Source of the DNA: Liolophura sinensis
Lineage: Eukaryota > Mollusca > Polyplacophora > Chitonida > Chitonidae
Assembly: GCF_032854445.1 (NCBI RefSeq)
Contig: NC_088302.1
Span: 45,608,645-45,672,644 of the forward strand
Length of the DNA stretch: 64,000 bases
Reading direction: 5' to 3'
The notes beneath the pieces are model-generated. The model was not told where the DNA came from. It worked only from the letters and a program-made list of their open reading frames with translations, and ran no database searches. Made by a program: the position numbers and the translations under genes. Position 1 is the first letter of the stretch, and every line of letters begins with the position of its first letter. Shown here in pieces: positions 19,701 through 22,700 of this stretch.

Positions 19701-22700
19701 AGAAAAAAACTGGTTAGAGTATTTTGGATATGACAGTTATCAATCATCCTCCCATCTATGAAATAAAACTGGTTAGATTATTATGTTTATGAGAGTTGCC
19801 CGCCATCCTCCCATCTAAGAAATAAAACTGGTCAGAGTAATTTGTGTATGGTAGTTGCCCACTGACACCCTATTTTGTGAATACCACAGGCCAGATTAAT
19901 TTTCAACGTCACAAGATGCCCGTTATCCTTCCATATAATGAATGTTAAGATCAGATACATGGAATACTAAGAAAGATCATATTCCTTTTGAACGGGATAA
20001 AAACGCGTGTGCATCCTAATTTTTGCATGTAGGAATGCTCTTGTGTCTTGGCATTGGATTGGTGTCTTGCTTATTGTTTAAACATTTACACACGGTCTTT
20101 GCGGCGTGTATTCCTATTCCAGGGCGGAGTGTATGTGGAACAGATCTTTGAGTGGTACTGTGGGGGTAAGCTGATGTTCATCGCCGTCTTCCTGGAGTGT
20201 GTCGTCATAGCATATGGTTATGGTAAGTTCCTGGAGTCTGTTGTCATAGCATATGGTTATGGAAAGTTCCTGGAGTGCGTCGTCATAGCACATGGCTAGG
20301 GTGAGTTCTTGGAGTGTGTTGTCATAGCATATGGTTATGGTAAGTTCCTGGAGTCTGTTGTCAGAGCATAAGCTTATGGTAAGTTCCTGGAGTGTGTTGT
20401 CATAGCACATGGCTAGGGTGAGTTCTTGGAGTGTGTTGTCATAGCACATGGCTAGGGTGAGTTCTTGTAGTGTGTTGTCATAGCACTTGGCTAAGGTGAG
20501 TTCCTGGAGTGTGTTCTCATAGCATATAATTATGGTAAGCTCCTGGAGTCTGCTGTCATAGTATATCATTATGGTAAGTACCAGGAGTGTGTAGTCATAT
20601 CAACTGGTTATGGTAGGTTTCTGGAGTGTGTCATCATAGAATAAGTTTATGGTAAGTTCCTGCATTGTGTCGTCATAGCATATGGTTATGGTAACTGCCT
20701 GGAGTGCGTTGCCTCAACATATGGTTATGGTAAGTACCTGGAGTGTGTCATCATATCATATGGTTATGGTAAGTTCCTGGAATCTGTTGTCATAACATAT
20801 GGTTATGGTAAGTACATGGAGTGTGTCATCATAGCATATGGTTATGGTAAGTTTCTGGAGTGTGTGGCCATAGCATATAGTTATGGTTAGTTTCTGGAGT
20901 TTGTTGTCATAGCATATGGTTATGGTATGTTCCTGGAATCTGTTGTCATAGCAACTGGTTATGGTAAGTGCCTGGAGTGTGTCATCATAGCATATGGTTA
21001 TGGTAAGTACATGGAGTGTGTCGTCATAGCATAAGGTTATGGTAAGTACATGAAGTGTGTTGTCATAGCATATGGTTATGGTAAGTTTCTGGAGTGTGTT
21101 GTCATAACATATGGTTATGGTAAGTTCCTGGAATCTGTTGTCATAGCATATGGTTATGGTAAGTACATGGAGTGTGTTGTCATAGCATAAGGTTATGTTA
21201 AGTTTCTGGAGTGTGTTGTCATAGCATATGGTTATGGTAAGTACATGGAGTGTGTTGTCATAGCATATGGTTATGGTAAATACATGGAATGTGTCGTCAT
21301 AGCATATGGTTATGGTAAGTACATGGAGTGTGTTGTCATAGCATAAGGTTATGGTAAGTTCCTGCATTGTGTCGTCATAGCATATGGTTATGGTAAGTAC
21401 ATGAAGTGTGTTGTCATAGCATATGGTTATGGTAAGTTTCTGGAGTGTGTCGTCATAGCATATGGTTATGGTAAGTTCCTGGAATCTGTTTACGTAGCAT
21501 ATGGTTATGGTAAGTACATGGAGTTTGTCGTCATAGCATAAGGTTATGGTAAGTTTCTGGAGTGTGTCATCATAGCATATGGTTATGGTAAGTTTCTGGA
21601 GTGTGTTGTCATAGCATATGGTTATGGTAAGTTCCTGGAGTGTGCTGTCATAGCATATGGTTATGGTAAGTACCTGAATGTGTAGTCATAGCATATGGTT
21701 ACTGAAAGTGCTTGAATTGTGTTGTCATAGCATATGGTTATGGTCAGTTCCTGGAATGTGTCATCATAGCATATGGTTATGGTCAGTTCCTGGAATGTGT
21801 CGTCATAGCATATGGTTATGGTAAGTTCCTGGAGTGTGCTGTCATAGCATATGGTTATGGTAAGTACCTGGAGTGTGCCATCATAGCATATGGTCATGGT
21901 AAGTTCCTGGAGTGTGTTGTCATAGCATATGGTCATGGTAAGTTCCTGCGATGTGTTGTCATAGCATATGGTTATGGTGAGTTCCTGGAGGGTGTCGTCA
22001 TAGCATATGGTTATGGTAAGTTTCTGGAATGTGTTGTCATAACATATGGTTATGGTAAGTTCCTGGACTGTGTCATAGCATATGGTTATAGTAAGTACAT
22101 GGAGTGTGTGGTCATAGCATATGGTTATGGTAAGTTCCTGGAGTGTGTTGTCATAGCATATGGTTATGGTAAGTACATTGAGTGTGTCACCATAGCATTT
22201 GATTACGGTAAGTACCTGCATTGTGCGGTCATAGCATACGGTTATGGTAAATACCTGGAGTGTGTTGTCATAGCAACTGGTTGTGGTAAGTTCCTGAAGT
22301 GTGTAGTCATAGCATATGACATATGACCCTCAAGTGTTACCTTTGCCTTTAAATCTGCCGACATGGCCCTCTTTTACATCGCATCAATATCTTAGCCAGA
22401 GATTTTTTCTCTAAATTCCCAAGCAAAATTTTAAAATTGATAAGAATGGACATCAAATACATTAACATTTTCATTGTATATATTTATTTGACACATCTGA
22501 ATGCGCCTGCCTTTTTTTAAAGTTATATATAACATCACTTAAAACTAAAGATGCATATTTATGAGAAACAAAATAAAAATTAATGTTTAATATTTCTGCA
22601 ACCTAATAAATGCTTGGAAACGATTACATATCGCACAAAGTAAACAATTATGTTAATCTTTGGGACTTTATTTGACATTAGTTAAAATGAAAATCAACTC

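What the first reader, a model, noticed from the sequence alone, without database searches (positions are those of the whole stretch)
20184..22320. A splice donor turned into a minisatellite: 39-bp array seeded by the 3' end of SLC6 exon 10
The repeat unit is the last 34 bp of exon 10 plus GTAAG from its own donor, copied about 54 times into the following intron. The seed is coding sequence ([14 protein letters not shown]10), so the array starts exactly at an exon-intron boundary. Nascent RNA would carry dozens of consecutive 5' splice sites, each with nearly full U1 complementarity (ATGGTAAGT). This is seen directly. Effects such as alternative donor use, U1 recruitment or slow splicing are inference. 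I know of no described system with this architecture.
Basis: partly seen in the sequence, partly recalled or inferred. Interest (0 to 1): 0.88.

Follow-up and report, generated by a model that had tools for sequence, protein, structure and literature searches.

The report
Splice-donor minisatellite in chiton transporter gene
In a chiton (a mollusc), the end of one exon together with its splice signal has been copied about 54 times into the next intron; it is a large example of a rarely described but known kind of repeat ("mirage"), and similar repeats sit at several other genes of the same animal.

Summary
The array is real: 55 head-to-tail units (39 bp, last one partial) at 20189-22318. The unit is the last 34 bp of exon 10 of an SLC6 transporter gene plus GTAAG of its own donor. 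The host matches a chiton assembly published as Liolophura japonica, later corrected to L. sinensis. The exon seeded the array, not the reverse. But the architecture is already described: amphioxus "mirages" are tandem repeats spanning exon-intron boundaries. It is not unique here either. Intron 5 of the same gene has a second donor-seeded array, and a survey of four gene families found donor-seeded arrays at 9 of 116 exons against acceptor-seeded at 1 of 114 (p = 0.019; curated by eye). Intron-interior controls were positive at 11-15%, so boundaries are not hotspots. Best account: blind birth of intronic minisatellites; donor-spanning ones survive because the first donor is still used. Copy 1 has lost its GT and copy 2 carries an in-frame TAG, so any later donor would give a premature stop. 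Decoy donors are neither clearly purged nor clearly conserved. No RNA was examined, so splicing is inferred.

The parts
20189..22318 (+). 39-bp donor-seeded minisatellite, 55 units; unit 0 (20189-20227) is the end of exon 10 plus GTAAG
20123..20222 (+). exon 10 of the SLC6 gene; authentic donor at 20223
20261..20266 (+). donor position of copy 1, GT lost (GGAAAG)
20297..20299 (+). TAG in copy 2, in frame with exon 10
14829..15598 (+). second donor-seeded array, about 37-bp unit (about 27 bp of the end of exon 5 plus about 10 bp of intron); related, more diverged repeats run on to about 16038
14721..14855 (+). exon 5; authentic donor at 14856
10610..23181 (+). SLC6 gene, exons 1-11 (10610-10739, 11234-11365, 12280-12544, 13251-13383, 14721-14855, 17184-17287, 17626-17750, 18345-18457, 19139-19276, 20123-20222, 23081-23181); a likely exon 12 at 23889-24068; C-terminal end not located
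   Evidence: PF00209 580.1 bits over residues 8-492, profile 1-474 of 524
20223..23080 (+). intron 10, 2858 bp, about 2.1 kb of it array

Best explanation
It is a mirage-type minisatellite. A 39-bp segment spanning the exon 10 donor was tandemly duplicated, then expanded and drifted inside intron 10, presumably by slippage or unequal exchange. It most likely has no function of its own. Array birth in this genome does not favour exon boundaries; arrays that catch a donor are tolerated because the original, 5'-most donor stays in place and is used, and everything after it leaves with the intron. Shown: architecture, direction exon to array, local uniqueness, the second array, recurrence in other genes, the lost GT in copy 1 and the stop in copy 2. 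Inferred: that the first donor is the one used, the duplication mechanism, and that selection tolerates the array and does not maintain it.
For: Seed is conserved coding sequence. All 14 scored matches of the main array and all 4 of the second array lie in place. Donors of exons 5 and 10, out of 12 exons tested in the gene, have recurrences; no acceptor does. Survey: donor-seeded arrays read by eye at L030, L058, L075, L083, L086, L098, L119, L121, L124 (9 of 116) and acceptor-seeded at L045 (1 of 114). Intron-interior controls 23/211 and 28/208, 45/294 and 51/340: donors are not above background (p = 0.44 and 0.051), acceptors are below it (p = 5e-5 and 4e-6; control positions are not independent). 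Decoy GT bases: 20 mismatches of 354, expected 33 for random column pairs, p = 0.067, so no sign of purging. In-frame TAG in copy 2.
Against: The first 7 arrays looked at gave lower GT divergence than chance (p = 0.026), which neutrality does not predict; with 12 arrays it weakened to 0.067 and 0.11. The automatic counts alone (7/99 donor, 2/97 acceptor, artefacts included) do not differ significantly (p = 0.17). Identical decoys with 34 bp of copied exon context should compete with the authentic donor, and I recall that intron-proximal donors often win when strengths are equal; how the first one wins is unexplained. No RNA data were examined.
Confidence: 0.8

Rival explanations
1. The array is functional: dozens of near-intact donors recruit U1 snRNP to the nascent RNA, to suppress premature polyadenylation in the intron or to pace splicing, and the donors are maintained by selection.
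For: 50 of 53 intronic copies keep GT and 36 of 54 donors keep G|GTAAGT; GT divergence below chance in the first 7 arrays (p = 0.026).
Against: With 12 arrays p = 0.067, and 0.11 against other GT pairs. Similar arrays at unrelated genes differ in unit, length and copy number, as expected of drift.
Confidence: 0.07
2. Array birth is directed to 5' splice sites, for example through a transcription- or splicing-coupled DNA structure, so donors are true hotspots.
For: 9 of 116 donors against 1 of 114 acceptors, p = 0.019; two donor arrays in one gene.
Against: Donor rate (7.8%) is not above the intron-interior controls of 11-15%. The difference is as well explained by loss of acceptor-seeded arrays.
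Confidence: 0.08
3. Later donors are used productively and the gene makes length variants with 13 extra residues per copy.
For: 39 is a multiple of 3, so the frame is kept through the first copies.
Against: Copy 1 has no GT and copy 2 carries an in-frame TAG before its own donor; 12 of 55 units hold an in-frame stop. Many other units in the survey are not multiples of 3 (37, 73, 109, 64, 43).
Confidence: 0.02
4. Assembly artefact.
For: Tandem arrays can be mis-sized in assemblies; HiFi coverage was 14x.
Against: Mean HiFi read length 8,347 bp exceeds the 2.1-kb array, and intronic copies differ by 16% pairwise. Copy number may still vary by allele.
Confidence: 0.02

Closest known systems
Amphioxus mirages (Adh3, globins BflGb6 and BflGb9, troponin C, PGBD5)
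   Same: Tandem repeats whose unit spans an exon-intron boundary, at 5' or 3' boundaries; reported not to disturb regular splicing (PMC3087553, PMC3902484, passages)
   Different: Mollusc, not cephalochordate; about 54 copies against 6 and 3 units in the BflGb6 haplotypes; length instability and splicing not tested here
Intron gain or intron change by tandem duplication of AG/GT sites (Rogers 1989; Zhuo 2007; Gao and Lynch 2009; seen only as citations in PMC3087553)
   Same: Tandem copies carrying splice signals
   Different: No new intron or exon is created here; the array lies inside an existing intron
Ordinary intronic minisatellites
   Same: Unit size, drift between copies, intron location; arrays cover 11.9% of the sampled bases outside exon matches
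   Different: The first unit is coding exon plus the authentic donor

Membership tests
Mirage (boundary-spanning minisatellite) | Repeat unit contains exon and intron sequence on both sides of a splice junction | tested here: met
   34 bp exon plus GTAAG
Mirage (boundary-spanning minisatellite) | Head-to-tail array adjoining the exon it derives from | tested here: met
Mirage (boundary-spanning minisatellite) | Regular splicing in spite of the array | not testable with these tools
   no RNA data held; the stop in copy 2 is indirect evidence
Mirage (boundary-spanning minisatellite) | Length instability between alleles or tissues | not testable with these tools
   one haploid assembly, no reads
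Mirage (boundary-spanning minisatellite) | Found in cephalochordates | tested here: not met
   host matches a chiton assembly; treated as the range of past reports, not as part of the definition
SLC6 / SNF transporter (host gene) | SNF profile over an intact reading frame | tested here: met
   PF00209 580.1 bits, residues 8-492 of the 492 joined codons; C-terminal end not located

The most novel reading that the evidence does not exclude
Chiton introns are a standing natural experiment in 5' splice-site choice: arrays of tens of near-identical donors, each with its own copied exon context, are common at donors and rare at acceptors, either because the spliceosome reliably takes the first donor while acceptor copies do harm, or because array birth is itself coupled to 5' splice sites.
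Probability: 0.2. Interest if true: 0.75.

Novelty: new member of a known kind. Interest (0 to 1): 0.48.

Why it matters
It carries what had been reported for amphioxus into Mollusca, shows it recurring at several percent of sampled donors in one genome, and offers a strict in vivo test of donor choice: one authentic donor against 35 others with intact G|GTAAGT, preceded by copies of the same 34 bp of exon. If the shortage of acceptor-seeded arrays holds genome-wide, it bears on how the two splice sites are recognised.

Tried and rejected
Host: a GFP-family search, meant to test for a lancelet, found nothing (its controls also found nothing, so it shows no absence). The host was then identified from assembly statistics.

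Boundary hits rejected after reading: L084 (the test picked an open stretch inside the array), L107 (array shares only about 5 bp with the exon), donor side of L023 (array begins inside the intron; it is seeded by the acceptor of the next exon). L113 was dropped because its repeated exon piece does not cross the donor. L069 was not resolved. L078 was skipped as too short.

GT conservation in arrays: p = 0.026 with 7 arrays, p = 0.067 and 0.11 with 12 (L030 left out because its motif was lost from the consensus). Not claimed. AG loss in acceptor-seeded stretches: 17 mismatches against 10 expected, p = 0.16. Not claimed.

Boundary tests: the strict finder gave 6 of 56 donors and 0 of 68 acceptors but located only those of 100; the boundary-agnostic test gave 7 of 99 donor sides (5 kept, 2 artefacts) and 2 of 97 acceptor sides (1 kept, 1 artefact), p = 0.17. 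L098 was found only. ABC exons: 4 donor hits of 17 (3 kept), 0 acceptor hits. Uncurated hits together, 11 of 116 against 2 of 114, also give p = 0.019.

The other arrays tested in the window (18206, 19444, 25786, 26651, 27079) match no exon of this gene.

Literature: searches for boundary-spanning repeats gave two papers that describe them, both on amphioxus; (chiton) listed none; on competing donors gave nothing that I used. PMC12783039 (passages) has intronic minisatellites, with no boundary-spanning unit mentioned in what I saw. The Adh3 paper is not held and is cited through PMC3087553.

Full report
Observation. The array stands as described, with small corrections. TRF reports period 39 and 54.7 copies at 20189-22318. 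Cut unit by unit it has 55 units, the first being the end of exon 10 itself. The unit is 34 bp of exon plus GTAAG. The 51 full-length intronic copies differ from the consensus by 9.4% on average, and intronic copies differ from one another by 16%. The array fills about 2.1 kb of a 2858-bp intron.

The gene. Eleven exons with canonical splice sites join to 492 codons without a stop; a likely twelfth follows at 23889-24068, and the C-terminal end was not located. The product matches the SNF/SLC6 profile over residues 8-492, and its best matches among solved structures are taurine transporters. The seed [12 protein letters not shown] aligns to FFECFVIAWIYG in 9kmi, so the coding end is older than the array.

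The host. The held genome has 609,464,459 bases in 632 contigs, and its contig C9 is 37,343,639 long. The chiton assembly published as Liolophura japonica has 632 scaffolds, 609,495,693 bases and N50 37,343,639 (PMC11068029, passages). A correction renames the species L. sinensis (PMC12441733, whole text). The identification rests on these numbers; the totals differ by about 31 kb.

Origin. The first 217 bp from 20184 gave 14 scored matches in the genome, all inside this array. A stretch of the second array gave 4, all in place. The tool scores only the best candidates and skips very common words. The second array starts at the donor of exon 5, with a unit of about 37 bp. Of 12 exons tested in the gene, the donors of exons 5 and 10 gave recurrences and no acceptor did.

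Survey. I took exon matches of four families in the same genome: the 30 best SLC6 and 30 best kinesin rows with 1.5-kb flanks, the next 20 kinesin rows and 20 TCP-1 rows with mostly 600-bp flanks (the two longest TCP-1 matches were left out), and 17 ABC-transporter exons in 15 loci with about 350-bp flanks (the longest match was left out). Listed in all were 109 SLC6, 132 kinesin, 50 TCP-1 and 49 ABC matches, so this is a best-scoring part, not a random draw. The gene of the finding was kept out of the rates.

Survey result. Donor-seeded arrays confirmed by reading: L030 (older and less regular), L058, L075, L083, L086, L098, L119, L121, L124. Acceptor-seeded: L045. That is 9 of 116 donor sides and 1 of 114 acceptor sides, Fisher p = 0.019. 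The counts are curated, exons of one gene are not independent, and flanks differ. The automatic counts alone (7 of 99, 2 of 97, artefacts included) give p = 0.17; with the ABC exons added, 11 of 116 and 2 of 114 give 0.019. Seen in passing and not counted: donor arrays of neighbouring exons in L019 and L029 (in L029 by translation of the unit only; the exon may lie outside the locus), and an acceptor array in L023/L070 whose unit holds the start GGIYWLQLM of the next SLC6 exon.

Background. Arrays of period 20 or more and at least 2.5 copies cover 11.9% of sampled bases outside the exon matches and 3.0% of those inside. Intron-interior control positions were positive in 23 of 211 and 28 of 208 and in 45 of 294 and 51 of 340. 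Against these, donors are not raised (p = 0.44 and 0.051) and acceptors are lowered (p = 5e-5 and 4e-6), though control positions cluster in loci (25 and 26 loci), so these values are too small. Boundaries are not hotspots; acceptors look protected.

Fate of the decoys. In the main array 50 of 53 intronic copies keep GT. Over 12 donor-seeded arrays GT bases mismatch 20 of 354, against 33 expected for random column pairs (p = 0.067) and 28 for other GT pairs (p = 0.11). Seven arrays had given p = 0.026. In acceptor-seeded stretches AG mismatches 17 times against 10 expected (p = 0.16). Decoy donors are not removed, and there is no firm sign that they are kept.

How it works. The unit of 39 keeps the frame, so a later donor would add 13 residues per copy. 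But copy 1 reads GGAAAG where its donor should be, and copy 2 carries an in-frame TAG at 20297-20299, before its own donor. Any later donor would therefore bring a premature stop. If the gene works, the first donor must be the one used for the working product. This is inference from sequence; no RNA was examined. Many other units in the survey (37, 73, 109, 64, 43 bp) are not multiples of 3, so the arrays as a class are not a coding device. My suggestion for the donor-acceptor difference, from general knowledge and untested: extra acceptors upstream of the true one, each with its own AG, would capture the scan for the first AG, while extra donors downstream of the true one come too late.

What is known. 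Boundary-spanning tandem repeats are described in amphioxus as mirages, in Adh3, globins, troponin C and PGBD5, at both kinds of boundary, and are reported not to disturb regular splicing (PMC3087553 and PMC3902484, passages). The present array meets the structural definition. New, as far as searches go, are a mollusc host, about 54 copies against the 6 and 3 of BflGb6, recurrence in four gene families of one genome, and the donor-acceptor difference.

Noticed in passing
27079-29358 and 25786-26536: Two more large arrays (49 bp x 46.5, 46 bp x 16.2) between the SLC6 exons and the next gene; they match no SLC6 exon found here.
   Followed up: partly
about 33453-49301 and possibly on to 58442, minus strand: Frames with two TAZ zinc fingers (33453-35552, 48744-49301) and a bromodomain (44454-44765): probably a CBP/p300-type gene (name recalled). 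TRF lists only small arrays there.
   Followed up: partly
4728-6226, minus strand: Reverse-transcriptase frame (RVT_1 at 4728-5333) with further broken frames beyond; looks like a degraded LINE-type element (label recalled). Described only.
   Followed up: partly
L023 and L070: SLC6 paralogue: an acceptor-seeded 43-bp array, interrupted by other sequence, before the exon homologous to exon 10; that exon reads on without an intron where exon 10 of the window gene ends.
   Followed up: partly
L019 and L029: Two other SLC6 genes with donor arrays whose units encode the same exon end (ICPxFxG / RICALFKG); not tested whether independent or inherited.
   Followed up: no
L113: A 41-bp piece of exon recurs at 98% identity in the following intron without crossing the donor.
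   Followed up: no
11547-11662: Perfect (AT)58 microsatellite in intron 2.
   Followed up: no
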